From assembly GCA_963922205.1 (NCBI GenBank), contig CAWUHX010000235.1, forward strand, positions 289,918-353,917: DNA of 64,000 nt, in the 5' to 3' direction. Position 1 is the stretch's first letter, and each line of letters starts with the position of its first letter. This document shows, piece by piece, positions 1,003-27,396 of this stretch. The notes under the pieces are model-generated. The model saw nothing but the letters and a program-made list of their open reading frames with translations. It did no database searches and was not told the origin of the DNA. Position numbers and translations under genes: made by a program. The stretch is from Romanomermis culicivorax (lineage: Eukaryota > Nematoda > Enoplea > Mermithida > Mermithidae).

Positions 1003-1477
1003 GAACTAGTTTATTAGAAAATGCCCCGATGGGACAGAAAAACGGAGAATATACTTTCTTCAATAGTTGCCATGCTAGAAAAAGAAGTGGACTAGATTTT
1101 TGAGAACTTGGGTCAAAGTTGGAAAAAATTCACTTTCTTTATATTGGATTTTCATCCTTTCTGAAAAAAACTTTCCATGTCTGTGAAAAAGTATATTCTG
1201 CAGCATCGTGCATTTTGTCCTTCTCCTGGCATTAACTACAGCAAAATTTTTTGATATGAAAATTATATGCACATGATTTCAAATGTAAAAAATGGTAAAC
1301 CAATAGCTTTCTAACTCCTGACCAATTCAAAACTCCTGCCTAATGATGATTATTAAAGTTATAACCAGCCTGAAGCACTGAAAAATTTTGAGATTATGAA
1401 CTTCTAAAATGCACCAAAATGCATATTTTCTCTACCTTATCAAAAAAGATGGCTCTTAGTGACCCTTTTTCAACTAC

Positions 1478-4118
1478 CGAGGAATAAACGATGTTACGCC
1501 AAGTGACAAATTCCCAATCCCGCGCATTGACGATTATTTGGACGCGATGGGACAAGCAAAATTTTTCACTATCCTCGACCTAAAGGCCGGGTACTGGCAG
1601 ATACCCCTTGACAATGATTACCAGGACAAAACAACCTTTATCTGCCAAGAAAGTTTGTTTCGATTCAAAGTTTTGCCATTCGGTCTGAAGAACGCACCCG
1701 CCAAATTCCAATGCTTAATGGAAAGAATCCTCCGCCCGTACATCTGGGAAATTTGTCTTGTTTACATTGACGATATTATTGTTTTCTCGAATTCATTTGA
1801 AGAACATTTGGAACATCTACAAATCGTTTTGGACGCCCTCCGTGCAGCCAGTCTTACCCTTCGGCCTGATAAATGCGAATTCCTGCTGCCACAAGTCAAA
1901 TTTTTGGGACATCTTCTAAGCGCCTGTGGAATCGCTGCCGATCCAGAGAAAGTCAAAGCTATTCCCGAGTCTGTATTTCCGTGGACCAAAAAAGGTATGC
2001 AAAGTTTTTTAGGGTTAGTTCAGTGGTGCAAAAGATTTATCCCGAAATTGGCAACCTTGTCCAGTCCTTTGTATGGACTCTTATGAAAAGACGCCCAATA
2101 CATAGCCACGGAGGAACACCATGCCGCATTCAAAGGTATCAAGGAAGCCCTCACATCGTCACCTTTCCTCCGCTACCCGGTCTACAATGGAAAAGCTCAA
2201 TTTGTCATCCAAACTGACGCCAGTACGACCGCCATTGGAGCAATTTTATGCCAGGAAAACAACAATGATCAATAGGTCATCGCATACAACAGTCTCGTAC
2301 TCACCGATGCTGAAACTCGATACAGTACAACAGAGCCCGAATGCCTCGCCATTGTCAACAGCTTCAGGATGTACCGCCACTATGTTTATGGCCAAAAAGT
2401 TATTGTTCGCACCGACCACGAGCCCCTCGAATGGCTCAAAGATGAAAAACACCAAAATTCATGCCTCCAACGTTTTGCTATCAATCTCCAAGATTACGAT
2501 TACAAAGTTGAATACGTCAAAGGCAAAGACAATGCTTGCGCTGATTTTTTGTCCAGGAAAGATGACCGCGATAAAACATCGATCCCGAATACTGAAAACT
2601 TAACCACCAAGATTTTCCGTAAAGATTTTCACCCTGCTGGTGCATTGTTGGCCGCCCACTTAACTGTACCAGATATACTCACAGCAGCGGCCACACTGCC
2701 CATGGAAGTCGATGCAGACGTCAACCCTGTCACTGGGGCAATGGCAAAGAAACCCATCAATCAACCCACACTCTTCGATCACATGCCATTGGCCACTGAC
2801 TACGCGCCACCTCCGGTTGAAGCCATAACCATTGCCTCCTACAAGGAAGTCAAACAAGCGCAAGCTTCCGACCCTGCAGTCACCAAAATCATTGTCACCC
2901 TCCAAACTGGCAATGCGGTGAAACATCCACCCATCTTCTTCACCAAAGATGGTCTTTTGTATCGCCAGATCAAAGACAACCGCCAGCAAGTCGTCCCGGC
3001 ATCTATGGTTGACCAAATGTCACGCCAATTCAACGGCGCGAAAATTTTGAACCACCAAGGATCTAACCGAACGCTGGCAGCCATCAAAGCTCATTTTTGG
3101 TGGCCCCGTATGGAAGAAAACATCCGTGATTGGATCAAGTCCTGCAAAATTTATCAATTGACGTCACCACAAATGCCGCCGCTGCCACCCTTATTGCCGA
3201 TACAACCGACACACCCTTTCGAAATTGTTGCCACAGACATTGTCAATATTTCCCCAGTAGGTGAGAAATGCCCCTATGTTATTGTTTTTTAGGACTACTT
3301 CACAAAATGGGTTTCTGCGCACCCCATTCTGGATCAAAAGGCGTCAACCATTGTCCAATGCTTTGTGAACTATGTTGCCCTCGCCCATGGTAGCCCACTT
3401 GTCCTCCTTTCTGATCAAGGTGGATGCTTCACGTCGAAATTGATGCAAGAAATTTGGGAACTCCTAAAAGTTCGAAAAGTCAAAACAACTGCCTACCACC
3501 CACAATGCAATCGAATGGTTGAGCGCTTCAATCAAACACTTATCGCTCAACTGAAGAAATATACCGCCAATGATCCCGACAATTGGGAGCATTACCTACC
3601 ATATGCCCTCTTTGCCTACAATGCAACACCCCATACAGTAACGCCGTTCAAATTATTACGTGGTTAGGAGCCCCGAATTACATTTGACTATGATTGTGCT
3701 TGCTGTCTTACGCTACCCCTCAACTACGATGCCTACCAGCACATCTTGACGCAAGCGCAGCTCAAAATGTACGAATAGATCAAATTGAACTTCGATAAGG
3801 AATGCCAACCCCAGCAAGAAATACTATGACCAGAAAGTCCACAAAAGAGAAATTAGCATCTATGACCTCATCCTTTTGGTCAACAATAAAAAAGGTAACA
3901 AAATTCAACCAGATTTTATAGGCCCATTTATCGTCACTGACGTCAGTAATATTGATAACAATACGGTTACGATTGACGCTTTGGATACACCTGGTTGACC
4001 ACAGATTGTTGCTATTTCTCGATTGAAGCCTTTTATTCCATGCCCGGCCCGAGACACTTTCATCGCCGAAGCTGGTGGATCACAATGCCAACAAATTGAT
4101 GCCGCCCAGCAACATTAA
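1478..4118 (+). pseudogene. Gypsy pol remnant (RT, RNase H, integrase)
   Basis: RT is readable at 1,478-2,086: [16 protein letters not shown] and the catalytic YIDD are intact. Near 2,086 the frame shifts. RNase H continues (TDAST, then [10 protein letters not shown] at about 2,410) with a TAG at about 2,274 where Trp is expected. The integrase zinc finger (NHQGSN..., then CKIYQL in place of CxxC) has lost its second cysteine. A TAG at 3,290 interrupts just after VATDIV. The core resumes with LLSDQGG and MVERFNQTL (D and E of the DD35E triad), and another TAG follows at 3,665. An integrase C-terminal tail with frameshifts reaches about 4,118. It cannot make an active polyprotein. Confidence 0.85.
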
Positions 4119-10268: not shown

Positions 10269-12000
10269 TCCTAAGCCTAAAGGTCCTGTCATACTTCACC
10301 GCGGGGTACCGCGCGGCGCCGGTTGTTCTATCCATACTAAAAAGCGGCGCCGCGCGGTACCGCCTTTGAAGTATGAATAGGTTTTTGTAATTTTTGCGGC
10401 GTCGCCATCAAGTTTCAACTAAACCGAAATTTTCGAACAAGTTATGTGTTATAAAGTTGCAGCATATTGTTGTTGTAACATATCGTTGCACACTGTGACA
10501 TGTATACATGTAGTTGAATGATATTTTTCACTTGAATGCTGAATTCTGACACTTGTCAAATTATTTTACCAAATTGATTACTTAATTTTCAATGAAAATT
10601 TACTAAGAAGTTGATCACTCAATTTTCAGTGAAGACATTGTAATGTGTAAAAATTATGAATATGCAAAGTAGGTGTAAACATGTTCCTACAGCAAGTGCA
10701 CTCGCAGATTTGATTGTGTCTTTATTCCCCCAACGTCCCTTTTCGGCAAATATCCCGATTGTCCGAAAGTTCATATTCCCCGTAGGTCACAATTCCCCGA
10801 ATAATGAATAAATTTCCTATTTCCCCGAAAAATGGATTAGTCTCTATGATTGTGTTTTTATTCCCCGAACGTCCTCTTTCCCCGAACGTCCCGATTCCCC
10901 GAAAGTCCCTATTCCCCGAAGATCCCGATTCCCCGAATAATGAATAAAATTCCCTTTTCCTCGAACAATGCATTAGTACCTATTCCCCGAACGTCCCGAT
11001 TACCCGAATAGGATGGATCCACTTTTTTTGACTAAATCGAATCCGGATCTTAAAAAATTGTTTCGCCAAATCATGATCCAGATCTACATAGCTGCAGTTG
11101 CATGCTAGGGGTATAAAATTTGGCCCTTGTAAAGAAGCCAAGCAGAGCATTCTAATGCAGTAATCCGCGTTATAAAAGCTCCACCATTCAAAAGTTATGT
11201 AAGTCAGCACCGGTCGCCTTTTTTTGGCTCCATGTACATGATCTTGATCTGGTCGGATCTGCTGTTCAGGATCTTGATACAGATCCCACGACTGCAGCTA
11301 TCTAGATCTGGATCATGATTTGACGAAACAATTTTTTAAGATCCGGATTCGATTTAGTCAAAAAAAGTGGATCCGTCCTATTCGTGGAATCGGGACGTTC
11401 GGGGAATAGGTACTAATGCATTGTTCGAGGAAAAGAGAATTTTATTTATTATTCGGGGAATCGGGATCTTCGGGGAATAGGGACGTTCGGGAAAAGAGGA
11501 CGTTCGGGGAATAAGGACACAATCATAGAGACTAATCCATTTTTCGGGGAAATAGGAAATTTATTCATTATTCGGGGAATTGTGACCTACGGGGAATATG
11601 AACTTTCGGACAATCGGGATATTTGCCGAAAAGGGACGTTGGGGGAATAAAGACACAATCGAAATGGAGTACACTTGCTGTAGGAACATGTTTACACCTA
11701 CTTTGCATATTCATAATTTTTACAGATTACAATGTCTTCATTGCAAATTGAGTGATCAACTTCTTAGTAAATCTTCATTGAAAATTAAATAATCAATTTG
11801 CTCAAATAATTTGACAAGTGTCAGAATTCACCATTCAAGTGAAAAATATGATTCAACAACATGTATAGATGTCACAGTATGCAACAATATGTTACTACAA
11901 CAGTATGCTGCAACTAGAACACATAACTTGTTCGAAAATTTTGGTTCAGTTGAAACCTGATGGCGGCGCAAAAATTACAAAAACCTAGGGCCTTTACTTT
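10269..12000. mobile_element. Foldback element with ~0.8-kb arms and GC-rich hairpin end
   Basis: Left arm 10,269-11,100 and right arm about 11,288-12,000 are inverted complements; for example GGGGAATTGTGACCTACGGG at 11,574-11,593 has its complement near 10,780. Both arms carry serial CCCCGAA/TTCGGGG motifs with AATAATGAATAAA. The left end has its own hairpin: GGTACCGCGCGGCGCCG and its complement at 10,295-10,365. The loop (11,101-11,287) contains a piece of another element ending GGTCGCCTTTTTTTGGCTC. TTAGGC-type hexamers (CCTAAGCCTAAAG) sit at the left border. No ORF. Confidence 0.7.
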
Positions 12001-12284: not shown

Positions 12285-12973
12285 GCGAGCCAAAAAAAGG
12301 CGACCGGTGCCGACTTCCATAACTTTTGAACGGATGAAGTATTCATAACGTGGATCGCTGCGTTAGGAAACCCTGTTTGTCTTTGTTACAAGGCCCAAAT
12401 TTTATGCTCCCAGCATTGATGGATACTGTACAAACAGAACTTTAGTAAAAAAGATCGTTTTTCAAAACGTAAATGTTGTGAAATGAAAGTCACACAACAA
12501 TATTTTGAAAATCAGCCAGATTTGTAAGTTACACGTAATTTAAAGTCAGCAACTTCTTGTTTCAATATGATCAAAATTTCGCCAAAATCAAGAGCTTTTG
12601 TTATGAAATTGGAAAAAAAACAAAATTGAAGCAAAATCAACTCTGTCATTGACCAGATCGAAAAACGATTAAAATTATTCGTGAAACTGAAACTAGGACA
12701 CACTAAAGTGGCTCTCTTGTAGTTTCAAGCTGTTATATGGTTCTTATGATTGGATCTATTGTGCTTTTCTGCCGTGAAACATGTTGATTCTGTAAATTTT
12801 TAAATATTTATTATCAAAAAAATTAACGTTTAGTAATTTTGATTTTAGTCAGTCAAAATTCAAGAAATCTGACTGTAACTTTGCAGTCTTTATGCCAAAT
12901 GTTTTATCTATTGTTGACAGGGAACCGCACTAAAAAATATTCACCCGTTTGGAAGCTATAAAAGTCAGTACCG
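12285..12973. mobile_element. Small TIR element, left portion, interrupted by the 13.7-kb Gypsy
   Basis: Left end GAGCCAAAAAAAGGCGACCG (12,288 on) followed by ACTTCCATAACTTTTGAACGG. The inverted complement is the right end, CCGTTTGGAAGCTATAAAAG... at 12,945-12,973, which continues as ATCGCCTTTTTTGGCTC after the Gypsy (26,693-26,709). The intact element would be about 705 bp. A related right end is present uninterrupted at 11,190-11,240. No transposase. Confidence 0.65.
12970..12973. other. Target-site duplication ACCG (left)
   Basis: ACCG directly before LTR start TGTC; the second copy is at 26,689-26,692 directly after GACA. The uninterrupted paralogous site at 11,201-11,225 reads AAGTCAGCACCGGTCGCC with a single ACCG, confirming the duplication. 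Confidence 0.9.
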
Positions 12974-13811
12974 TGTCGTATATTGTGGTCGTATACCCTC
13001 TGCTACCTACCTGCGGTTCTTGAGAGATCCAGACTGGTACGGCCCCTGACGCTAACCCGGTACTAAATACAATCCTACTGCAGACAACTGAGACTTGGTG
13101 AACGAAGATATTTATTTTGAATAAACGAAAGTGTGAATACAACAGTGAAGGTAAGTGATAAACGAAATGCAAGTGCCAAAGTACGTGAACACAAACGCCG
13201 ATCTCCTCCCTGCTTCGCTGATCCTTCTATTCGTCCCGGTGCAGAGAGCCACAGGGACTTCAGGATATCTTAGTCCACGGCCTAAGCTGAAACTTGTCCG
13301 AAGACGAAAACAATCTACCTGACTCCAGAATAACAACTCACTAATTTCCTTGATCAAAATTGATTGTTGAAAACCTCCTCAGGCCGCGTAAATCCTCAAG
13401 GTTGAAACGCGACGCGAAATCTGAAACACACAATAAACAAAATGGCGAATGCGCCCTCGCTCCTTCCTGAGTCACCGCGGGTCTTTACACAAACCTCCAA
13501 TCCTTCGGATGGGACGAACACAATATGCAGAATGGAGACGCTTCTCCGAAGATGCAATAAAAACGACCAGGCGATAATAAAACGAATTATCAGAATGAAA
13601 AAACATACTGCAACGCGCCTAACATCAACTTGCTAGTTGCATGCAAAACATTCGCGCCCACCATTTATTTATTTTGGACCAAAAATGTATGTGACACAAA
13701 CCGTTTTACCAGTTTGTTTACCTAAGAATAAATGGAAACACTTTAACAACTTTAGGAAATGAAAGTGAGGTAATTAGAGGACCAAAGGTCAGAGGAATTG
13801 ACCCTCTGACA
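12974..13811 (-). repeat. 3' LTR of the 13.7-kb Gypsy (838 bp)
   Basis: Direct repeat of 25,843-26,688. In element sense it starts TGTCAGAGGG and ends ATATACGACA. The first 25 sense bases contain an inverted repeat (TCAGAGG...CCTCTGA). Confidence 0.95.
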
Positions 13812-14977: not shown

Positions 14978-17869
14978 TTACTTTTGTCTATGACTACTGT
15001 GGTCCCGCCCAGGCTGACCAATACCGTGTTCTCTTTTCAACGGCAATATGTAATCGGGGTTTCCCGTCGACGGCGGTCCTTGGGGGGGTTGTGTACCCAT
15101 CGAAGTCCCCGGAATGTCCATTCTTTCTTCACCTTGTACATTACGTATCGGCGGAATTATCGTGGGTGGCGGCATTTGAAGGCTGGGCGGAACCAAGAAT
15201 TGGTGATAATATTGTGGTTGCCCCGGCTGGAATTGCAAAACCGGAAATTGCGGTACTTGAAACTGCGGTGGAGGAGGTATCATCATATTGGGCAATACTT
15301 GGCCTGAAAAAAGAGGGCGATTCATACAATCAACTCCTACCATAGGCAGTCCCGGGTAGTTCGGCAGCATATATGGTAATTGTTGCTGCTGCGCTTGCAT
15401 CATTGCGTTCGGATCGGCCATCGATACTCCTTGTTGACTCGTTTCGTTGGCTCTAGGCCTATCCAGTGAAGCCGTTCGACTGGAGTAGGACACGTCCGAC
15501 CAATCATCGTGTTGGTAATATCCCGGTGTCCTCTTTCGGCTTCGAGACTTTCGGCTCCCTTTTCGTTCTTCCGATTCTGTCTTTTCTTTTTCCCTTCGTT
15601 CGAACTTTTCTTCATACTCTTCAATTTCTTTGCACCAGCTTTCTTCTTCATTTTCTCATCGTCTCTTTTCTCTAGACATCGATTTTTCATGACGACTTTC
15701 ATCTCGGTGCCGACTTTCGTATCTCCTTTTCCTTTCCTTCTCTGGTGTCGCCGATTTTTCTCTCTTTCGTTCATCATCATCTTTTCTAGTCCAATGTTTG
15801 GATACCTTACCTGCCGCAGGCCTACTGTGGGCGTGCTTAACTCGGTATCCGATTTTCTTTTTCAAACTTTTTTTGACTTCCAAAATATCGTGAGCCTTCT
15901 TTCTATCGATTACCTCCCAAAAGCGTATGCGGGGATCAGTGTTGTTGGTTTCTTTCTTCCATACCTGAATATTGGCATATTTCGGTTCTGGATCTTTCTT
16001 ATCCTGCAGGATGGCCTTAGCAATCGTATACGCTAATCCCGCTGCCTTAGACTGGCAAGAGGCGTATAACGTATGAAAATTACTGCCTGCTCCTTCTTGT
16101 CTGGCATTAAATTCGCGGCGTAGTTTCATAGTAACGTAAGCGTGAGCCTGATAATGGAATCCGGTGAAATTCTGTGGAATTCTGCCCAACTGCGACAATT
16201 TCATGAATAAGCAGGCGCAAGCCCATACAGGGGCTTCGTATGCTTTCCCCGGAGGCCTAGTTGTAGTCCATTCGGCCAGTTGAAGTTCGAAAATGTTCCA
16301 CAAATTTTCGGGTAAATTTGCCTGCAGCACGTGAAACTGCAGTTCATAGTAGCGTATTGTTTCTATTTCGATTCCTGCTTCATCGTAGATACGATTTATC
16401 AAGTCCGTTGTCATAAGAGCTACCTCTTCGTCCAAAGCGGGATCCATGTGCGCGAGATATTTCTGAATACACGGATTTGACAGAGATACTCTACCATATT
16501 GGAAATCTACGACGTATTTTCCTTCTTTCAACGCTTTATTCAGGACTTGCCCGCGTTTCCCGAGGCCTCGTCGATACTTGATTTTGTCATTTGGATTTCC
16601 TGCCGGTTGTTGGAATTTTCCACTTTTCACTTTGTCCAATTTGGCTTTGTTCTCCTCTTGCGTTATTCGTTTCTCTTTCTCTTGTCTCTTGTTGTACATT
16701 ACTCTCGCAAATTTTTCGGGGTTCGTTATGTTTTCTACATTTTGCCCACCGGCCTTAGCGTATACCGGCGGCGCGGGCAAAACATTAGTTTCAGGTGTTT
16801 CGTCATCACTCCCGATTTCGGAAACGACTTCCACGTATGGTTCCTCGCTTGTTCCTTCTTCTTCGGCGTTAACATTCTCTAATTGCTTTGCCAGTTCGAT
16901 CGCAGCCTTTCCGTATGTCTCTTTTTCCAATGTTTCTATCTTTTCTTTCATTTCTTTTATTTGCTCGGTCAGCTTTTCCAAATCGGGTTGTATTTCACTT
17001 TCGGGCTCGACTATTTCCATTAATTTTTTCTCCTCTGCGACACCTTTACTCCCAACGGTGGGTGTATCGGCGGTAGGGGGATCCGTGATGATTACCTCTA
17101 CGGACTTTTCTTGTTCCATTTCGGTACCTGAAGCATTCAAATTATCGATTTTAGAGGGTATAATTTCCGTCTGTTCCTTCGAAGTTTTTTCTATAGGACC
17201 CTGGCTAGCCGGGACCACAACTTCTACTTGAGGAATCAGATCGGAGTCGTCCCACTTAGTCACAGACTTAAAGGTTGTGGAAGTGCTAGGGACCCATAGG
17301 TCCTTAGCCTCGAATATAGAGGCGGAAACATTCCAATAAATGAGATTTTTGCTAGCCCCGTGAATATGCAAAAAGTGAAACACGTTATAAAAGTTATAAT
17401 TCATAAAATAAATAGAATTTTCGCGTAAATTCGTTTCTATTTCTTCTGCGGGCTCTTTTATTGAACGCGGTATCGATTTTATTGGTAGAACGCAAAAAAT
17501 ATTTTGAATCGATTTCTGGGTACGCACGTTTGGATATCGTTCTATCATCCGTTCCATTTGCTCGGTTATTCTGTTGTTAAAAAGATCTTGTCCCATCCAT
17601 TTCATGAATTCAATTCGTTCTTGTTCGTTTCTCCACATGGAGGACCACATACCCGACGTAAATCCTGGAACCCAAGATCTCCATTCTTGCGCCGAATGAG
17701 GCCACAAGAAATAAATGAGGGGATTTACGTTCTTTTCATATAGTTCCTTGACTACAGGGACAATCGATCGATTGATTTTCGGATGGTAGTAGTCCCTAAG
17801 CAGCGATGCTTGTTCTCGTATATTATTTGTGAAGTGGATCACTCCCTTCGGCCATTTTCCTTGTTTCAT
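14978..17869 (-). CDS. Accessory ORF of the Gypsy: large unknown protein (coiled coil, RS-like tract, Pro/Gln-rich tail)
   Basis: ATG at 17,869, 45 bases after the exonuclease ORF. The frame runs 964 codons to 14,978 with one internal TGA at 15,656-15,658 (after MSREKRR); downstream codons stay in the same frame. Visible parts are an N-terminal Trp-rich region (residues about 50-90), an acidic linker, a likely coiled coil at about 295-335 (LEKLTEQIKEMKEKIETLEK), a globular-looking region at about 430-640, an Arg/Ser/Glu-rich tract at about 690-800 resembling RS domains, and a Pro/Gln-rich tail from about 830. I recognise no family. Position after integrase is that of env, but no signal peptide or membrane helix is seen. 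It could be an RNA-binding or structural protein; that is inference. Confidence 0.75.
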
Positions 17870-17914
17870 TTCGGTTTCTTTTGGTTCTAACGGCCGTCCG
17901 AATTGCCGTGCAGA

Positions 17915-18988
17915 TTATATATCTTCCAAATCCCAATCATTGATGGGCCCTTCTTCTGAGTCTTCCATATCTTTCCTTTTCCGTGACGCTTTTACCTTTC
18001 TTTCCACCCACGGGTACCAACCGCGGGGTACTGGTTGCGGGTCAATGGCGCTATTCAAAAAATGCGGAGGACAATAAAAATTCCCTGGGGCTTGCTCTTC
18101 CGATAATTTATAGGTTGCGATTGCTTCTCCACGCATCATAAAATATAATGCGTTGATATTGCCCGTCATTTCTTCTACTCCATATGCGCGTTTCCATTGT
18201 GGATCTGTATATTTATCTTCGAACGTTTCTCGAAATCTTCAGGCTAAATCGGCAACCAATTCTGGTTCCATCGTATCATGCGGATACAACTTGAAACAAT
18301 TTTGTACATCAGTGGCGAATCCGTACCGAAGCAACGCTAAGAAACATAGAAGGGATCCGCGCGCGTCGAGCGTCGCGTATCGCAAAACTTCTATATTAAG
18401 TTTGTCCGCTTCCATAAGTTGTCCAAATTCTAAGGAGCTCAATTGCCCCCATGAAATTTTGTAAGCATCAGCCCAGAGGAATAAAACTTCCGTCATAAGA
18501 GCCTTTAAGCTCGGGGCTTCTGGGCTAATTCCGATCATTCTTGTCTTTGATTTATCCTTCATTTCCGCCAATACGATCTCCAAATCGTAAACGCAACATG
18601 ATAAAATATAGTCAATATTATCACGCCTTTTCCGAGCTAGCTCTCTCTCCTGATCTAAATAGCCGAACTTAGTCAGGACTAGGGTGATATCTTCGCGAAT
18701 GTGAAAGCCAACGATGATATTTTCTTGGCGAAAAATTGTCCCGTATATTTTATGAAAATGCTCCTTGTCCCAAAACTTCAAGTCTATTATGAAATTCTTT
18801 TCACACATAGTCGAAATCGTTAGGAGCCTCAACGCGTCGCTGGGTTTCGAACCTGGTGTTTTCGGTTTTCTTCCACTTTCGGTATCCAATGCAATAACTA
18901 TTTGTCCTCTGAATTTGGATTGATTTATGGCCTTATTAAACGCTTTGATATTTTCGGGCGCAAGGAACATAGGTTCTTCGATGGCCAT
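17915..18988 (-). CDS. Accessory ORF of the Gypsy: DEDDy 3'-5' exonuclease-like protein (RNase D/WRN/MUT-7 type)
   Basis: The frame is open from 19,054 (GTG); the first ATG is at 18,988 and is taken as the start. From that ATG: Exo I motif ALDTES (D35, E37); a RLLTIS...FIIDL strand; Exo II VGFHIREDITL (D100); a DLEIVL...SLKALMTEVL...KISW block; Exo III RYATLDARGSLL (Y204, D208). The order and spacing match the 3'-5' exonuclease domain family, and the YxxxD third motif makes it DEDDy. All four acidic residues are present. A TGA at 18,239-18,241 interrupts after residue 249; the same frame continues 107 residues to 17,915 (HFLNSAIDPQPVPRGWYPWV region), probably a CGA-to-TGA change. Intronless, same sense as pol, inside the LTRs. 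The role is unknown; replication-intermediate trimming or interference with small RNAs are possibilities only. Confidence 0.8.
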
Positions 18989-19753
18989 GTGTGGCCCACC
19001 GAACAACGATGTAAAATAATTAAAAATGTCTGTGGACCGCACCAATCTTCGCACGTTATAATCTTAAAATTTTCACACAATTTTTTACCTATTCCTTTTG
19101 ATAATAACTCCGAAACAAGAATGACTCAAATGCTCAAGAATAAATTTGGACATAGGCGAGTTGATCAGTCTCTCAAATACCCAAAATCCTCAGCATATAA
19201 ATTGCCGCGCGGTCAATTTAGAGTCCCATTTCGAATAAAAAATTTACCACATATTTTACCCTTTTTACAACTTACTACTAATTTGGAAATTGGTATTATC
19301 TTGGCGGTCTTGTGGCTGCCCGAAACTATTATCTACTTCGAGGATATTGGACGTAGCCATAGCATGTTCGGATTTGAACTTTGCGAATTCTCTAATCGAC
19401 GAAAATAATCACTATAGTAATATTTTGCAAATTAAATCTAAAAAACAGCTCCTTAACACCTCGAAGTTATGGGATCTATAACTCGGGGAGGATTTTCTGG
19501 GGACTTATAAACATTTTGATTTCTTCACACCGAGCGTGTGAAAAAATATAATTTTGCCCATTAAAATTTTTCCAGCGTCATAATTTTTTAATAAATGCCT
19601 AAAACTGCCATAAAATTGCCAAAAATAAGTTAGAACGATTAAAAATTTAAAGGGAAAAAGGGGAAAAATGGGAAAGGTATAATACATGGAACATTAAAAA
19701 GGACACATAAAACAAAATTTGAACACAACGCACAAATAAAACGATAAAATGAA
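18989..19753 (-). other. Spacer between integrase and accessory ORFs
   Basis: About 765 bases, very AT-rich, without ORFs of note. It could hold the promoter or splice acceptor used to express the downstream accessory ORFs, but no specific signal can be defended. Confidence 0.4.
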
Positions 19754-21256
19754 TTATAAGCTACAGTAAAAATCGGGTGTCCGCGTAACAAAAGGCATTA
19801 CGCGATTTATGGAAACTATTTGTACTCGCGAATCTGGTTTCCCAGCGCGGCATATTTTTATGACATTTTTGTCTAAATTCTGTCTCTCTATCACTTCATA
19901 GGGACCGTCATTCGTTGTGTCGGCTTTCCCTTTTATGATTCCTTTTTGGTAGAGCACGAGTTCACCAATTTGGAATGTTTTCTCGCGAGCCTTCTTGCCG
20001 TACTGTAATTTTCGTTCGGCGGCCGATTTTCTGTGATTTTCGTTTATAATTTTGTACGTGTTAAGGAGATGTTCCATTAACATGTATTTATGAGTCTCGT
20101 AATTGTTTTGAACAATTATTGGCCTTGCAATGTCATTATCTATCTGAAATTTCGCCTCGTGGCCGTACAATAAACTATGAGGGGAGCTTTTTGTGGTTTT
20201 GTGGGGCGTAATCCGATAAGCAAATAAAATCTGCTCCAGATAATGAGGCCAATCATCTGGGTCGGTTATCGCCACTCTCCTAATTTGCTCAATTAGAGTC
20301 CTATTGAATCTTTCCACCATACCATTGCATTGCGGGTGGTATGGTGTCATATTTATCTTCTTTATTTTCAGAAGATCGCACACATTGCGCATCAATTGAG
20401 ACATATATGCTGAGCCCTGGTCGCTCAGCAAGTGTTTTGGCGTCCCGTGGGTATAAATTACTTTCTCCATAAATGCCTTTACTATGGTATCGGCTTTCTG
20501 GTTGGGAATACTTTTGGCTTCTACCCATTTCGTGAAATAATCCATAAATACAATAACGTATGGTCTCTTTTCCCGTAGAGGCGAAATACTAACCACATCC
20601 GTAGCAACTATTTCCCAAGGGTAGGATACAGGTATGGGATTAAGAGGTTGAATGGGGTTCGATATAGGGCGACATAATTGGCATACGACGCAGGATTTTA
20701 TCCACTTGATAATGTCGTCTTCCATATTCGACCACCAAAATTTATTTCCAATTGCGGCGATAATTCTATCTATTCCTTGGTGTCCCATTAAGGTATCGCC
20801 GTGGTATTGATGTAAAACAAGGTGTCTAAGCTTCGAGGGGATTTCTAATTGATTTCTTCCGTGGATATTTTCTCGGTATAATACTTCGTTTTCTAAGTGA
20901 AAACTGTTAAAGTTTTTTTTGGAACTATTTTGGCCAATATTCCGAAAAATATCCATCAGTTTGGAGTCTGATCGCTGTTGTTTCTTAATCAATTCCAGGG
21001 AAAATAGTTCGGACTCCTTTTTCACTTCTTCTGGCGTTTGGTCTATTTCTTGTTGAGTCGGCGGTGGTAGGTCGATAAATGTTTCCTGTGTCTCGGGCTC
21101 AAGCATCTGTTTGGTCATGGCTCGCGTTACTGCCATGCATTCGGGTTCCGTATTCACATTTTTGTCCTCAATTTCTTCGTTACTTTCTCGTTTTTTGTTT
21201 CGAATCTTTTCTTTCTCCTTGGATCTTGATAAAAAAATCTGCAAAGGCATTTTCAC
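19754..21256 (-). CDS. Gypsy integrase (C-terminal part of pol)
   Basis: 500-codon frame. It contains an HHCC zinc finger (H152, H159, C189, C192), then the DD35E core: VATDVV (D220), LLSDQGSAY (D279) and NGMVERFNRTL (E315), with 35 residues between the last two. A Gypsy-type C-terminal region follows, including the GPYEVIERQ segment near the end. All catalytic residues are intact. This frame is offset from the RNase H frame by one base. The switch lies at an A7 run on the + strand (21,231-21,237), where ADFLSRS is expected, so it is a single-base indel or sequencing error rather than a designed frameshift. Confidence 0.92.
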   Translation of the reverse strand: MKMPLQIFLSRSKEKEKIRNKKRESNEEIEDKNVNTEPECMAVTRAMTKQMLEPETQETFIDLPPPTQQEIDQTPEEVKKESELFSLELIKKQQRSDSKLMDIFRNIGQNSSKKNFNSFHLENEVLYRENIHGRNQLEIPSKLRHLVLHQYHGDTLMGHQGIDRIIAAIGNKFWWSNMEDDIIKWIKSCVVCQLCRPISNPIQPLNPIPVSYPWEIVATDVVSISPLREKRPYVIVFMDYFTKWVEAKSIPNQKADTIVKAFMEKVIYTHGTPKHLLSDQGSAYMSQLMRNVCDLLKIKKINMTPYHPQCNGMVERFNRTLIEQIRRVAITDPDDWPHYLEQILFAYRITPHKTTKSSPHSLLYGHEAKFQIDNDIARPIIVQNNYETHKYMLMEHLLNTYKIINENHRKSAAERKLQYGKKAREKTFQIGELVLYQKGIIKGKADTTNDGPYEVIERQNLDKNVIKICRAGKPDSRVQIVSINRVMPFVTRTPDFYCSL

Positions 21257-21395
21257 GTCCAGCTACATATTCAAATGTATAGTTAAACTGTCCAAGATAT
21301 AAGGCCCATTTCAATAACCTTTGATTTTGTTGTTTTTCTGCGGAGAGCCACGTAAGTGGTTTATGATCTGTTCTGATTGTGACCCTGAACCCCAT
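21180..21395 (-). CDS. Gypsy RNase H C-terminal part
   Basis: Continues in frame with the RT ORF after the TGA at 21,405-21,407. It shows the RNase H landmarks VTIRTDHKPLTWL and YVAGRENAFADF. The Arg codon found at the equivalent place in the truncated Gypsy (MYRHYVYG, about 2,370) is TGA here (QY*HYVMG). The frame is lost at the A7 homopolymer at 21,231-21,237, after which the integrase frame takes over. Confidence 0.88.
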   Translation of the reverse strand: MGFRVTIRTDHKPLTWLSAEKQQNQRLLKWALYLGQFNYTFEYVAGRENAFADFFIKIQGERKDSKQKTRK

Positions 21396-21404
21396 AACGT
21401 AATG

Positions 21405-22628
21405 TCAGTATTGCTTGAACCCATAGACTACGGCTAGACATTCTCTTTCCGTTGTGGAATATCTTGTTTCGGCGTCGTTTAAAACTCTACTCGAATAGGC
21501 TATCGTCCAGCGATTGTTTTCCGTTTCTTGGTACAAAATCGCACCTATCGCTGTCCCCGAGGCATCAGTTTGAATCACAAATTTCGCCGATCCATCAAAT
21601 ACTGGGTACCGAAGGAAGGGTGCCGTCATTAGGGCGTTTTCTACACCTTCAAAAGCGGTTAACTGTTCTTCCGAAAGTTCGAACTTCTCCTTCCTATTCT
21701 TCTTTACGAGGGCTTTAAATAAAGGCTGGGCGATGAAAGCTAAATTATGTGTGAACCGTTTGGACCATTGTACTAATCCCAAAAATTTTTGTAGCTGCTT
21801 GATGGATTTAGGTACTTCAAAGTTTTTAACCGCTTCTATTTTCTGTGGATCAACCGACATTCCATTTTTATCCAATATGTGGCCTAAAAATTTTACACTG
21901 ACTGGCATAAAGGAACATTTGTCAGGTTTCAATGTGAGGTTCGCATTTGTCAGGCATCGAAAAATGGTCTCTATATTTTCTAAATGCTCCTCGACGGTTT
22001 TTGAGAAAATTATCACATCGTCGATATATACTAAACATATTTTCCATACATATGGATACAGAATTCGTTCCATGAGACGCTGAAATTCTGCGGGAGCATT
22101 TTTAAGCCCGAATGGCATTACTTTGAATTGGAAAAGTCCGTCTTGGCATATAAATGCCGTCTTTTCCTTTGATTCAGAGTGCATTGGCACCTGCCAGTAA
22201 CCAGACTTCAGATCCAAAGTCGAAAAGTATCGTGCACCTCCTAATGGGTCTAAATAGTCGTCAATTCGTGGTATCGGAAATTTATCATCTTTCATTACTT
22301 GATCGATTCCCCTAGAATCGACTACTGGTCTCCACGTGCCATCTTTCTTACCCACTAAAAACAATGGTGCAGCCCAAGGGCTTCTAGAGGGCTCAATGAC
22401 ACCTTTTTCCATCATATCCTTTACATGTTCACGGATGATATCTCTTCGCATGATGGGAGCTCTCCAGTAGTGTTTTTGGACCCGTAATGCGTCTCCTGTA
22501 TCGATTTTATGCTGTGCCTCATGGGTCATTGTTAAAGGGTCGTTTTTCATACTAAAGGCATGCCTATGTTTAAGTAGGACATTCATAAGTTGCTGTTGCC
22601 CTTCTCGATCGATACTCGATTCTTTCAC
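21405..22628 (-). CDS. Gypsy reverse transcriptase and N-terminal RNase H
   Basis: 407 residues. RT motifs in order are [36 protein letters not shown] (catalytic D139), [18 protein letters not shown] (D203, D204) and [10 protein letters not shown]. RNase H starts with [16 protein letters not shown] and [14 protein letters not shown]. All RT aspartates are intact. The frame is continuous with the upstream protease ORF apart from a TAG at 22,704-22,706, and ends at a TGA (21,405-21,407) where Arg is expected. Confidence 0.95.
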
Positions 22629-22703
22629 TAGTTGTGTTACAATTTTGATGAATTCTGGTTCGCTCTGCTGTTGGATTTGACGTTCTGTCTGAAGTTGATG
22701 TAT

Positions 22704-24449
22704 CTATTCGTCAAATTCTGGCCCCACGAATTTCGTTTTGGATTTCGCTATCAACTCATTGCTACGCAATTTTTTCCCTTTGTTCATTTCGTTTATAAGT
22801 AGAATTCGGAAATTATTATTTCTGGCGTCCACAATTGAGGCATCGACGTGGAATAAAGTATCCTTCCCCGTTTCTTCTACCACTATAGGACCCTTTGTCC
22901 AATCTTTCTGTGGCCAAACCACAGTTTGCACAAAAGAAGTGGTATTTGGGGGAATATATGTCCCCTTTTTTGTCCAAATAAAAGTTTCTTCATTCATTTT
23001 GGTAATTCGCATTACTTGTTCTTGATCATCGTCGCTTTCTAATTCAGGCAGATCTTCTTCCTTAATTTCCTCCTTTATAGGTACATAATCCAAAACCATC
23101 GGATTTGTAGGAATTGGCAACCGCGACGGTATTTGCGTCGAATAATTGTCGAATAATGTTTCACTAATTATCTGTCTTTCTACATTCGCTAGACGTATGT
23201 GGCCTTTTCGAAAATCAATAGACGCCTGTATACTAGGATGGGTTAGAAAATCTAGACCCAATATAATACCTTCGTTCAGGTTATCTAGCAATGCGAATCT
23301 AGCAAGAAAATTTCCAAAACCGGTTCCAACGTATATAAATGTAGGACCATATGTTGTTACGCGTTTTCCAACCGCTGTTACTACTGAATTTAAGATAGGA
23401 AATTTTGTCTTCGGTATATTCAGTAGTCTCGACGCTGTATCTGTCCTCATAAAGCTAGATTGTGCTCCCCTATCAATTAGGGCTTTGAATTCTTCTCCAC
23501 GTATTTTAACGGGTATTAATAATGGTTGGCATTTGCGAAAATTTTCCAAAAATAGATATTCGTTATCGTTGGCGAGTCTAGGTTTTGCTTCTGGGGTAGA
23601 ATTGATAACATTCGCCAAACTTAACTCATAATTTTCTATAACAACTCCATCTAAGGCTATAATTTCCAGTTTATCTTGTTTTTTAGCCTCTTGTGAATTT
23701 ATGACATTTATGGAATTATTCGGAGGATTGTTGATTGGTTGCGATGATGTTGACGGTACGATATTTGGTGGTGGCTGCGGGACATTATTTTGACAATAAT
23801 AATATGCCACATTTGAATTCTGTTCCGCATTGTTATTATGATATGGCGCCCGTTGACCGAAATTAGCAAAACCAGCTCGTGTACAATTTACAAAGCCAGC
23901 ACGATGGTCGAAATTCCGATTATAAAAATTGTTACCGCGATTCCACGACCTCCCCTGATCCGTTGGTTGAATCAATTCAGGATGAAGAATAAAACAATTT
24001 TCAGATGAGTGGCTATTCGATTTATGGTATGAACAATATGGTCGACGATATGGATTTCCCAAAACTCGATCAGGTAAATTATTGTATTGAACATTATTAG
24101 GATTACTATTGACTCCCCAACGATTAAGAACTGGAGGGCCCTGATTCCTAATTGCATCATTGACCATTTTCATAATATCTTGTTGCGATACAGGGTTTTG
24201 AAATGCTGGTGGCGGTGGAAAAATTTGCTGAGGCCTTGCAATTTGTTGTTGTTGACCTATACTGCTATCTTGCTGACAAATTTGCAAATTATTAAATCTT
24301 CTATTTTTATAGACTCGATTCAACCGATCGTCTTCGCTGTCTTCTTGTTCTTCGCTAAATTCCTTCCAGGCCGTCGTATCGGCTTTCAATTTGTTTACGA
24401 ATTCTGCCAAAGAGGGGATATTTTTAAATTCGTGAAGCCGACCTTCCAT
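22704..24449 (-). CDS. Gypsy gag C-terminus (zinc knuckle variant) and aspartic protease
   Basis: 581 residues in the same frame as the gag ORF above it (TGA at 24,507-24,509 separates them by 19 codons). A C-X2-H-X4-H-X4-C knuckle at residues 139-152 differs from the usual CCHC by His for the second Cys. The retropepsin region has [12 protein letters not shown] at 323-334 and IILGLDFL further on. The catalytic triad reads D-R-G instead of D-T/S-G, which should inactivate it. The frame ends at TAG 22,704-22,706 but 25 open codons link it to RT, so gag-pol was probably one long frame. Confidence 0.88.
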
Positions 24450-24506
24450 TCGAGTTTGAACGTATACTGGAGCCTTGTGAAAATATGTTTCAATAACAAT
24501 TCTATT

Positions 24507-25796
24507 TCATTCATTTTCCGTTTTTTCGTAGTTCAATAAATGCACATAAGTCTTTATTCGTGGCAAAAAATCTTTTGTAGTCTCCCCTTTTCGTTTTTTC
24601 ATATCATGTAACTCCCTTCTGAGTGCAGGAGTGTCCATTTTGGGGGCAATCATTCTAATCACGCTTGCTTTTCCTTCTTCATAGCTACCATTCTTATCCA
24701 CATAGGTCGACGTTTCCAAATCGCAACATCGCCAGAGTACTTCAATTCTTAGGTCTTCTGTGTCTTCAGGCTTGAATGTGCCTTCCAAACAGGCGAAAAA
24801 ATTTAGTATTTCTGCGGCCTCCATTTTATCGGATATTTCTTTATTTTTCATTCGACTTAGGATTATCTTCATTCTTTTTTCGGGATCTTCACAATATCGT
24901 CCATACTCTAGCCGATTTCGAGGGCTGCCTCCAGATGTGGGTTGTTCTCTTCCATGGTTCCATGAGGTCGTTCGTATTTCATCTTCAATCATTCGATGTT
25001 GGGCACCTTGAGCCTGGGCCTGAGCCAAATGGTTTTCAAACCAATTTAATTTTCTTTCTAAACTCCTGTCTAAATGGTCTTTAACCGGTTCAGACTGAAG
25101 TATTTCCATATCTCCAGGATTGTATATTCTTTCGTCGGGTTTCGTATTCATTTTCTTCATCAATTCCCACATTTGCTTTTCAACTTCTTCCCTGATCTTT
25201 CTTGAGTTTTGTTGCTCTTGTTCCCGAAATTTTTCTTCCCATAATTTACGTTCTGCTCTTTCTCTCGTTAATTGCTCGAGTATTTCTTGTTCCCGAAGTG
25301 CTGCTTTCGTTCTTTCTACATTAACGGCATTCGTCGATTTGTCAACTGCTCTTTGCATTGATTCCAGGATGGCTAAAGTGGCCACATCCTGTAAATTTCC
25401 GTTCGTTACCCTTTGGTTTTCATTTTTCGGTTTTGCTTCCATATCGATCTTCGCGTCAATTTTTGGTATTGTAGGCATATATCTTGAATTATAAAATGAT
25501 ACCGCATTCGTTTCTGTAGGTAAACTAATTTTCTCGAAGGATGATACTGAATCAGAGGACATCTGTATCCCCTGATCCGCATAATCATATACTTCCGCAT
25601 CAATAGTTTGATCTTTATCACTATCATCGGGTAAACTCCCGAATTTCTTTGCTACTTGTTCCATGGTTGCTTCCATATTTGCCATTCGTTCGGCGTGATC
25701 TTCTTTGGTCACTTCGGCTTGTGATAATGTTACTTTCCGTCGTCGTCCAGGTTGCTTCCGCACCGTTAATTTCGGTTTCGATACTTTCTTCATCAT
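24507..25796 (-). CDS. Gypsy gag polyprotein, N-terminal part
   Basis: 429 residues starting 46 bases inside the 5' LTR border (ATG ATG at 25,794-25,796). The basic N-terminus is followed by a long Glu/Arg/Gln helical stretch (about 130-215; [19 protein letters not shown]) and a capsid-like segment that ends [20 protein letters not shown], the signature seen near the end of Gypsy capsid domains. Stops at TGA 24,507-24,509; the frame continues into the knuckle/protease ORF. Confidence 0.88.
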
Positions 25797-25842: not shown

Positions 25843-26688
25843 TGTCGTATATTGTGGTCGTATACCCTCGGCTACCTACCTGCAGTTCTTGGGAGATCCA
25901 AACTGGTACGGCCCCTGACGCTAACCCGGTACTAAATACAATCCTACTGCAGACAACTGAGACTTGGTGAACGAAGATATTTATTTTGAATAAACGAAAG
26001 TGTGAATACAACAGTGAAGGTAAGTGATAAACGAAATGCAAGTGCCAAAGTACGTGAACACAAAGGCCGATCTCCTCCCTTCTTCGCTGATCCTTCTATT
26101 CGTCACGGTGCAGAGAGCCACAGGGACTTCAGGATATCTTAGTCCATGGCCTAAGCTGAAACTTGTCCGAAGACGAAAACAATCTACCTGACTCCAGAAC
26201 AACAACTCACTAATTTCCTTGATCAAAATTGAACGTCGAAAACCTCCTCAGGCCGAGTAAATCATCAAGGTTGAAACGCGATGCGAAATCTGAAACACAC
26301 AATAAACAAAACGGCGAATGCGCCCTCGCTCCTTCCTGAGTCACCGCGGGTCTTTACACAAACGTCCAATCCTTTGGATGGGATGAACACAATATGCAGA
26401 ATGGAGATGCTTCTCCGAAGATGCAATAAAAATGACCAGGCGATAATAAAACGAATTATCAGAATGAAAAAACATACTGTAACACGCCTAACATCAACTT
26501 GCTAGTTGCATGCAAAACATTCGCGCCCATCATTTATTTATTTTGGACCAAAAATGTATGTGACACAAACTGTTTTACCGGTTTGTTTACCTAAGAATAA
26601 ATGGAAACACTTTAACATTAAAGAAACTTTAGGAAATGAAAGTGAGGTAATTAGAGGACCAATGGTCAGAGGAATTGACCCTCTGACA
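25843..26688 (-). repeat. 5' LTR of the 13.7-kb Gypsy (846 bp)
   Basis: Direct repeat of 12,974-13,811, differing by scattered substitutions and an 8-bp longer segment near 26,615. It should carry the promoter for the - strand transcript. Ends TGTC/GACA; followed by TSD ACCG (26,689-26,692). Confidence 0.95.
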
Positions 26689-26692
26689 ACCG

Positions 26693-27396
26693 ATCGCCTT
26701 TTTTGGCTCACCACACAATTATTCATACAGATATGTGCTATATTCAGGATCCAGATCTGATCTGGGTCCGGTCGGACCTGCTGTGTAGGACCCAGATTCA
26801 AAGTGGATCCATCCTTTCCCTAGTATTTGGGAAATCGGGACGTTCATGGAATAGGGGCTAATGCGTTTTTCGGGGAAATGGGAAATTTATTCATTATTCG
26901 GGGAATTGTGACCTACGGGGAATATGAACTTTCGGACAATTGGGATATTTGCGGAAAAGGTACATTGGGGGAATAAAGACACAATCAAATCTGCGAGTGC
27001 ACTTGCTGTAGGAACATGTTTACACCTACTTTGCATATTCATAATTTTCACACATTAATGTCTTCATTGCAAATTGAGTGACCAACTTCTTAGTAAATCT
27101 TCATTGAAAATTAAGTAATCAATTTGGTAAAATAATTTGACAAGTGTCAGAATTCAGCTTTCAAGTGAAAAATATCATTCAACTACATGTATAGATGTCA
27201 CAGTATGCAACAATATGTTATAACAACAGTATGCCGCAACTTTAGAATACACAACTTATTCGAAAATTTCGGTTCAGTTAAAATCTGATGGAGGCGCCAC
27301 ACGGCCGCGCGGCGCCGCAAAAATGACAAAATCTATTCATACTTCAAAGGTGGTACTGCGTGGTGCTGCGTGGTACCACGCAGTGAAGTATAACTG
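26693..27396. mobile_element. Right end of the small TIR element, then half copy of the foldback element
   Basis: 26,693-26,709 completes the TIR element interrupted by the Gypsy. From about 26,740 the sequence matches the right arm of the foldback at 11,240-12,000 (GGATCC/GATCTG segment, TTCGGGG runs, TTTACACCTACTTTGCATAT) and extends into the hairpin end, with CGGCCGCGCGGCGCCG and GGTACCACGCAGTGAAGTAT at 27,300-27,392. Only one arm is present, so it is a half element. Confidence 0.7.

What the first reader, a model, noticed from the sequence alone, without database searches (positions are those of the whole stretch)
17915..19054. LTR retrotransposon carries its own DEDDy 3'-5' exonuclease-like gene
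The ORF lies between integrase and the 3' LTR, in the same sense and without introns, inside an LTR- and TSD-bounded element. It shows all three Exo motifs in order (ALDTE, VGFHIRED, YATLD) plus the helical block typical of RNase D/WRN/MUT-7 exonucleases. From established knowledge, a MUT-7-type exonuclease is needed for small-RNA silencing of transposons in nematodes, and DEDD exonucleases of this class are not a standard Gypsy domain. Inference: the element captured a host exonuclease and may use it to process its RNA/DNA or to blunt silencing.
Basis: partly seen in the sequence, partly recalled or inferred. Interest (0 to 1): 0.88.

Follow-up and report, generated by a model that had tools for sequence, protein, structure and literature searches.

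The report
Retrotransposon ORF3 with DEDDy exonuclease domain
A multi-copy jumping gene of a mosquito-parasitic worm carries, beside its usual genes, a large extra gene that begins with a probable 3'-5' exonuclease domain kept by natural selection about as strictly as the element's own integrase.

Summary
The window is Romanomermis culicivorax DNA. A Ty3-like element lies on the minus strand (LTRs 12974-13811, 25843-26688; TSD ACCG). Other copies keep it open (48 of 146 scored matches lie in frames of at least 1300 codons). The exonuclease is thus the front domain of a ~1,390-codon ORF3. 'Without introns' is wrong: a short first exon and a 209-231-nt intron recur in 28 unique copies. All five DEDDy residues are present and align in register with RNase D, but formal homology is weak (no Pfam hit, no usable model; HMM score reached by 6 of 2000 shuffles, or 0 with family 2 in the HMM). 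Of 148 integrase matches chosen blind to the exonuclease, 122 have it downstream, 119 at 721-752 nt. Its pN/pS (0.08) is like integrase's (0.09). A second LTR lineage in this genome carries a Pfam-recognised DEDDy ORF in the same place. Precedent: bdelloid rotifer LTR elements (PMC5408684). MUT-7 kinship, host capture and anti-silencing are not supported. Most likely role: 3'-end processing in the element's own cycle (inferred).

The parts
25843..26688 (-). 5' LTR of the element
   Evidence: blastn 95.9% to the other LTR over 846 columns; 27 substitutions in 838 aligned sites
12974..13811 (-). 3' LTR of the element
12970..12973 (.). target-site duplication ACCG, left copy (partner 26689-26692)
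   Evidence: flanks printed
24507..25796 (-). gag-like part of the gag-pol frame, 429 codons
   Evidence: position; no significant Pfam hit; same frame as 22704-24506
22704..24506 (-). aspartic protease region
   Evidence: PF09668 E=4.8e-6
21405..22703 (-). reverse transcriptase and RNase H
   Evidence: PF00078 E=2.3e-39, PF17919 E=7.3e-25
19754..21262 (-). integrase
   Evidence: PF17921 E=2.4e-19, PF00665 E=1.7e-14
19276..19360 (-). ORF3 exon 1, 85 nt, begins with ATG
   Evidence: same reading in other copies; joined form in gene models such as P0002, P0003, P0006
19063..19275 (-). ORF3 intron, GTAAGT...TTTTAAG
   Evidence: GTAAGT in 28 of 28 and TTTTAAG in 27 of 28 unique copies; length 209-231
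18242..19062 (-). DEDDy 3'-5' exonuclease-like domain, N-terminal part of ORF3 (D60, E62, D125, Y229, D233 of the 274-aa frame)
   Evidence: motifs; unguided alignments with RNase D in register; HMM against shuffles; selection
18239..18241 (-). in-frame stop in this decayed copy
   Evidence: gene models P0009, P0040 and P0041 read on through this stretch
14978..18238 (-). rest of ORF3, same frame, with further in-frame stops at 17915 and 15656 (frame ends at 14978): coiled-coil-like acidic part, K/R/S-rich part, P/Q-rich tail by eye; no known domain
   Evidence: no Pfam hit; frames of 1357-1361 codons in other copies

Best explanation
A Ty3/gypsy-type LTR retrotransposon family of Romanomermis culicivorax encodes, besides gag-pol, a third ORF of about 1,390 codons in two exons. 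Its first ~270 residues are a divergent DEDDy-type 3'-5' exonuclease domain, followed by a long acidic/coiled-coil-like part and a basic, SR-like tail. Shown here: position, linkage across copies, splice signals, single long frame, catalytic residues, purifying selection similar to integrase. Inferred: the protein is made from a spliced subgenomic RNA while genomic RNA keeps the intron (as for retroviral env and Cer1 CERV); the tail binds the element's RNA or RNP; the exonuclease trims or removes 3' ends of the element's own nucleic acids (genomic RNA ends or unprocessed/abortive cDNA ends) during replication.
For: Exo downstream of 122 of 148 integrase matches found by integrase alone, 119 of them at 721-752 nt. 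48 of 146 scored exo matches lie in frames of at least 1300 codons; 123 of 146 have no stop inside the match. Exo pN/pS 0.081, integrase C-terminus 0.091, next ORF3 blocks 0.153 and 0.271; in pairs with pS 0.15-0.5 these are 0.100, 0.096, 0.174 and 0.216 (28 unique copies). Active-site residues D 28/28, E 24/28, D 28/28, Y 28/28, D 28/28. Splice signals in 27-28 of 28. hhalign, unguided, places DTE, HIRED and YATLD on RNase D's motifs over 164 columns; 2 of 300 column shuffles reach that score and none that length. A second LTR lineage has a PF01612 ORF (E=1.3e-10) in the same place, residues D 30/30, E 27/30, D 29/30, Y 30/30, D 30/30 in 30 unique copies. DEDDy ORF3s are on record in rotifer LTR elements (PMC5408684).
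Against: Homology to DEDDy enzymes is not significant by standard tools: no exonuclease in Pfam, PDB, NCBIfam or PHROGs; hhalign probability 1.5%; no match to E. coli RNase D alone or to family 2. The AlphaFold model is unusable (pLDDT 43). The catalytic Glu is replaced in 4 of 28 unique copies, below the mean column conservation of 0.94, and 152 of 261 columns are invariant anyway. In the gene-model proteins the five positions are no better kept than other columns (percentiles 0.24-0.79); leaving out P0022, which is not exo and aligned by chance, D(I) is kept in 8/8, E(I) 7/8, D(II) 16/16, Y 11/12, D(III) 9/12. No activity, transcript or protein is shown.
Confidence: 0.62

Rival explanations
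1. The domain keeps the DEDDy fold but works mainly as an RNA-binding module (like the catalytically inactive DEDD derivatives Maelstrom and EXD1), with ORF3 acting as a genomic-RNA export or packaging factor comparable to Cer1 CERV.
For: ORF3 has an intron and sits where Cer1's CERV ORF sits; basic SR-like tail; PMC5408684 names EXD1/Maelstrom as inactive derivatives (passage); Glu replaced in 4 of 28 copies.
Against: D60, D125, Y229 and D233 are kept in 28 of 28 unique copies, more than a pure binding role would need, though many other columns are invariant too; no sequence link to CERV was tested.
Confidence: 0.2
2. Anti-silencing: the exonuclease trims or destroys host small RNAs or their precursors aimed at the element.
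For: In Trichinella, also clade I, endo-siRNAs target transposons, and clade I has an RRF-3-type RdRP (PMC4323106 passages).
Against: In R. culicivorax itself 5'-triphosphate small RNAs were not detected and PRG-1/Piwi is said to be absent (PMC4323106 passages); no kinship to MUT-7 found; the selection seen fits any role in the life cycle.
Confidence: 0.1
3. The resemblance to DEDDy exonucleases is convergent or spurious; ORF3 is an unrelated conserved protein.
For: No significant profile hit and no confident fold.
Against: The five catalytic residues fall in register in two unguided alignments, a Trp and a Leu landmark also; HMM score reached by 6 or 0 of 2000 shuffles; a source names 2 of the 36 homologues '3'-5' exonuclease domain-containing protein'.
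Confidence: 0.12
4. A host exonuclease gene landed once in one copy of the element (one-off insertion).
For: None found.
Against: 122 of 148 integrase-selected matches have it at near-constant distance; synonymous sites are near saturation between deep copies.
Confidence: 0.01

Closest known systems
DEDDy-type ORF3 of bdelloid rotifer LTR retrotransposons (Juno1/2, Vesta2/5) and Athena/Terminon elements (PMC5408684: abstract, passages, section 3.6; PMC6431247: passages)
   Same: DEDDy exonuclease-like ORF3 between integrase and 3' LTR of an LTR element, present in separate retroelement lineages of one genome
   Different: Here a nematode; exo is the N-terminal domain of a ~1,390-codon two-exon ORF3; DEDD is kept (rotifers: changed to DEED, passage); selection is measured on the exonuclease here, whereas section 3.6 there sequenced env and GDSL ORFs only and found mostly neutral variation. 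Direct sequence comparison not made: rotifer sequences were not at hand
DnaQ-like 3'-5' exonuclease as accessory domain of LTR-transposon polyproteins (PMC6338049, one passage, citing Novikova 2008, Rodriguez 2017, Ustyantsev 2017)
   Same: Exonuclease domain in an LTR element
   Different: The cited papers other than Rodriguez 2017 were not seen, so position and kind there are unknown to me
Cer1 CERV of C. elegans (PMC10309623: abstract, introduction, background section)
   Same: Large ORF between pol and 3' LTR of a nematode Ty3/gypsy element, part of a protein made from a spliced mRNA
   Different: CERV is described as a gRNA export factor; no exonuclease is mentioned in what I read; no sequence comparison made
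PF01612 (DNA_pol_A_exo1; RNase D, WRN, Rrp6, MUT-7)
   Same: Catalytic D-x-E, D, Y-x3-D in order and in register with RNase D
   Different: Below Pfam detection; about 18 extra residues after Exo II and about 12 before Exo III relative to RNase D
Family 2 of this genome (L002-L009, L040-L071)
   Same: Same genome, LTR element, DEDDy ORF after integrase, charged tail
   Different: Pfam-positive exo, 601-codon ORF in one frame, integrase only 24% identical, no significant exo similarity to family 1

Membership tests
Ty3/gypsy-type LTR retrotransposon | LTR pair with TG..CA ends and 4-6 bp TSD | tested here: met
Ty3/gypsy-type LTR retrotransposon | pol order protease-RT-RNase H-integrase | tested here: met
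   Pfam; order by coordinates. No RT phylogeny was made
DEDDy 3'-5' exonuclease (PF01612) | Pfam gathering cut-off reached | tested here: not met
   for the window family; met by family 2
DEDDy 3'-5' exonuclease (PF01612) | Exo I D-x-E, Exo II D, Exo III Y-x3-D in order | tested here: met
   window copy; 28 unique copies, Glu in 24 of 28, the rest 28 of 28
DEDDy 3'-5' exonuclease (PF01612) | RNase H-like DEDDy fold | tested here: inconclusive
   pLDDT 43.4, pTM 0.28; tool then switched off
DEDDy 3'-5' exonuclease (PF01612) | metal-dependent 3'-5' nuclease activity | not testable with these tools
   needs the bench
MUT-7 exonucleases | closer to MUT-7/Nibbler than to other DEDDy groups | tested here: inconclusive
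   no match of the window family to any PDB exonuclease, mut-7 homologues included; family 2 matches several DEDDy groups weakly, mut-7 homologue E=0.076 behind an RNase D-like protein and WRN
MUT-7 exonucleases | Mut7-C RNase domain at the C-terminus (recalled) | tested here: not met
   Pfam finds nothing at E<=1 in the two long pieces of the rest of ORF3
Bdelloid DEDDy ORF3 group | clusters with Juno/Vesta/Athena DEDDy ORFs by sequence | not tested
   rotifer sequences were not at hand
Bdelloid DEDDy ORF3 group | DEDDy-like ORF downstream of pol in an LTR element | tested here: met

The most novel reading that the evidence does not exclude
A 3'-5' exonuclease is a core, selection-maintained enzyme of some LTR retrotransposons, as constrained as integrase, and has been taken up separately by at least two LTR lineages in one nematode and by rotifer elements. 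That would point to an unrecognised 3'-end-processing or cDNA-clearing step in their replication, supplied by the element itself where HIV-1 makes use of host TREX1.
Probability: 0.35. Interest if true: 0.8.

Novelty: new variant of a known kind. Interest (0 to 1): 0.56.

Why it matters
DEDDy ORF3s were known from rotifers, but whether they do anything for the element was left open there. Here the domain is found in well over a hundred places (146 scored matches), is part of a long two-exon ORF, and is held by selection about as tightly as integrase. That makes a question testable: what does an LTR element need a 3'-5' exonuclease for? Host exonuclease TREX1 is reported to aid HIV-1 integration by degrading unprocessed viral DNA ends (PMC11259700, abstract), so an element with its own exonuclease would be an informative counterpart.

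Tried and rejected
Rejected: one-off insertion; intronless separate gene; MUT-7 type as a finding. Host capture is neither shown nor excluded.

Led nowhere: AlphaFold on A2 (pLDDT 43; no fold search was run on it); a second job on the rest of ORF3 (tool switched off); hhalign of family 1 against family 2 and RNase D alone; NCBIfam and PHROGs; the search for related loci in viral contigs (alignment not conserved enough). The hmmsearch part was spoiled by a naming error of mine (all residues became X); one search replaces it. The first motif table used patterns that presuppose some of the residues; searches are the counts to use.

Bias to keep in mind: the copies behind the selection figures were the 30 best by exo similarity to the window (28 unique, the window copy among them; of 146 scored, of 2542 first-look candidates), which lowers exo pN somewhat. 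Third-position divergence near 0.5 beside second-position divergence of about 0.05 between deep copies cannot arise from that alone. For family 2 the 30 best of 77 matches were used.

Full report
What is there. The window lies in a 359,112,060-base, 595-contig assembly, the figures given for Romanomermis culicivorax v2 (359.1 Mb, 595 scaffolds; passages of PMC10879605). All 36 homologues of the domain found at E<=10 are R. culicivorax proteins, as are all 6 of the next ORF piece; that search only reaches relatives sharing short words. On the minus strand lies a 13.7-kb LTR element: LTRs 12974-13811 and 25843-26688, 27 substitutions in 838 aligned sites, TG..CA ends, ACCG on both sides and a purine tract before the 3' LTR. 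Pfam finds protease, RT, RNase H and integrase in Ty3 order.

The reading frame. The finding's interval is not one ORF. From 19063 down to 14978 there is a single frame of 1362 codons, broken here by in-frame stops at 18239, 17915 and 15656. Gene models from other copies run through the first two stop sites (P0009, P0041; P0040 through the first, P0023 through the second). In the genome, 48 of 146 scored exo matches sit in frames of at least 1300 codons, typically 1357-1361, and 44 of those 48 have no stop inside the match. The exonuclease is thus the front domain of a large ORF3. The two long pieces of the rest of ORF3 have no Pfam domain: an acidic coiled-coil-like stretch, a K/R/S-rich stretch and a P/Q-rich tail, by eye.

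The intron. Upstream of the domain lies MATSNILEVDNSFGQ...FQIS, then an intron of 213 nt from GTAAGT to TTTTAAG, and the frame resumes as NYNVRR. In 28 unique copies, the window's included, the donor GTAAGT is present in 28, the acceptor TTTTAAG in 27, exon 1 is 85 nt in 27 (84 in one; one more has a stop in it), and intron length runs from 209 to 231 nt. Six gene models show the joined form (P0002, P0003, P0005, P0006, P0012, P0037). Genomic copies keep the intron, so the RNA that is reverse transcribed is unspliced; ORF3 would come from a spliced message. That last step is inferred, by analogy with retroviral env and with Cer1 CERV (PMC10309623, introduction).

Is it a DEDDy exonuclease? The order IALDTES, VGFHIREDI, RYATLDA fits Exo I, II and III of the DEDDy class (motif definitions recalled). 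Formal evidence is weak. Pfam finds nothing at E<=10 for the window ORF and no exonuclease in 10 homologues at E<=1. PDB sequences give nothing for the single sequence and one irrelevant weak hit for the profile. AlphaFold gave pLDDT 43. Against that: hhalign, unguided, lays the family over 164 columns of a profile of 13 bacterial or PDB-derived DEDDy sequences plus family 2, with all catalytic residues in register (probability only 1.5%); 2 of 300 column-shuffled versions reach its score and none its length, and the reversed family gets about half the score. A DEDDy HMM without family 2 gives the window copy 3.3 bits (6 of 2000 shuffles reach it); with family 2, 6.3 bits (0 of 2000). MAFFT gives the same register. 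A source names 2 of the 36 homologues '3'-5' exonuclease domain-containing protein'. I put the DEDDy assignment at about 0.85.

Linkage and selection. Of the 148 scored integrase matches, found without regard to the exonuclease (7018 first-look candidates), 122 have an exo match downstream on the same strand, 119 of them at 721-752 nt (for the matches taken the exo start was set by a fixed offset). Seen from the other side, 105 of 146 exo matches have a listed integrase upstream. For the 26 integrase matches without one, the exo may be absent or merely outside my capped lists; a search meant to settle this did not complete. Across 28 unique copies the five catalytic residues are kept 28/28, 24/28, 28/28, 28/28 and 28/28; but 152 of 261 columns are invariant in that set, and Glu is kept less well than the average column. 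In the gene-model proteins the five positions are no better kept than others. Pairwise pN/pS is 0.081 for the exo, 0.091 for the integrase C-terminus, then 0.153 and 0.271 along ORF3; in pairs with pS between 0.15 and 0.5 the figures are 0.100, 0.096, 0.174 and 0.216. The exo is therefore constrained about like integrase. The sample leans towards copies similar to the window exo, but the codon-position pattern (L010 against L023: 0.077, 0.042 and 0.502 at positions 1, 2 and 3) is not explained by that.

A second family. PF01612 has 80 matches in this genome; some may be host genes. The eight fetched, L002-L009, all match one ORF family; its 601-codon member in L009 finds 77 matches. It carries LDAEF, SNCDL and EYAALDA, with residues kept in 30/30, 27/30, 29/30, 30/30 and 30/30 of the 30 best copies, pN/pS 0.13 for the exo and 0.25 for the tail. 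Of these 30, 27 have the same integrase upstream within the stretch held. One element, at C69, has LTRs 99.84% identical over 620 aligned bases and probably a GGTG duplication at its ends; inside are a CCHC knuckle, RNase H, an integrase zinc-binding domain and the exo ORF, but no RT core was found within the LTRs. Its integrase is 24% identical to the window's and the two exo families show no significant similarity. So two separate LTR lineages in one genome hold a DEDDy-type ORF in the same place.

How it works. Best reading: ORF3 is made from a spliced RNA, its tail holds it on the element's RNP, and the exonuclease trims or clears 3' ends of the element's RNA or cDNA. Constraint like that on integrase says that the domain matters for spread; it does not say which substrate. 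Rodriguez et al. proposed 3'-end processing of retrotransposon RNA for the rotifer ORFs (PMC5408684, passage). Host TREX1 aiding HIV-1 integration by degrading unprocessed DNA (PMC11259700, abstract) is a parallel on the DNA side. The anti-silencing idea is weakened because 5'-triphosphate small RNAs were not detected in this species and Piwi is said to be absent (PMC4323106, passages).

What is known. I searched for DEDDy or DnaQ-like exonucleases in retrotransposons, nematode Ty3 extra ORFs, Romanomermis retrotransposons and mermithid retroelements (where none of the 8 of 303 papers listed holds the word mermithid). The listings show the rotifer paper, the giant-transposon review (PMC6431247, passages) and PMC6338049 (one passage); I saw no title or abstract start on a nematode DEDDy ORF3. 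The library holds open-licence PMC papers only and the listings were partly capped. Section 3.6 of the rotifer paper sequenced env and GDSL ORFs and found their variation mostly neutral. New here, as far as those searches go: the nematode occurrence, the long two-exon ORF3, and selection on the exonuclease.

Noticed in passing
window 24507, 22704, between 21405 and 21262: The gag-pol frame of this copy is also broken (two in-frame stops and a frame change), while many other integrase matches lie in frames of 2010-2011 codons: this copy is dead, the family is not all dead.
   Followed up: partly
window 19063-19275 and L010-L039: Third codon positions of the exo (mean pairwise 0.33) diverge much more than the element's intron (0.11) or the spacer before exon 1 (0.13). 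Either the intron and spacer are constrained RNA, or synonymous sites change unusually fast.
   Followed up: partly
G000:C69 ~273025-280551 (L070, L071): Family 2 element without a detectable RT core yet with nearly identical LTRs and an open 1155-codon frame (CCHC, RNase H, integrase) plus the exonuclease ORF: possibly a non-autonomous but recently mobile element that kept its exonuclease.
   Followed up: partly
window ~1430-3799, + strand: Another Ty3-like RT/integrase, 57% and 42% identical to this element's, with no match to the exonuclease after it at E<=1e-5.
   Followed up: partly
window 35499-36282: A solo LTR-like stretch, about 78-86% identical to the element's LTRs.
   Followed up: no
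window 10378-11987 and 26851-27298: A nested inverted-repeat cluster on one side of the element has further copies just beyond its other end, about 92% identical.
   Followed up: no
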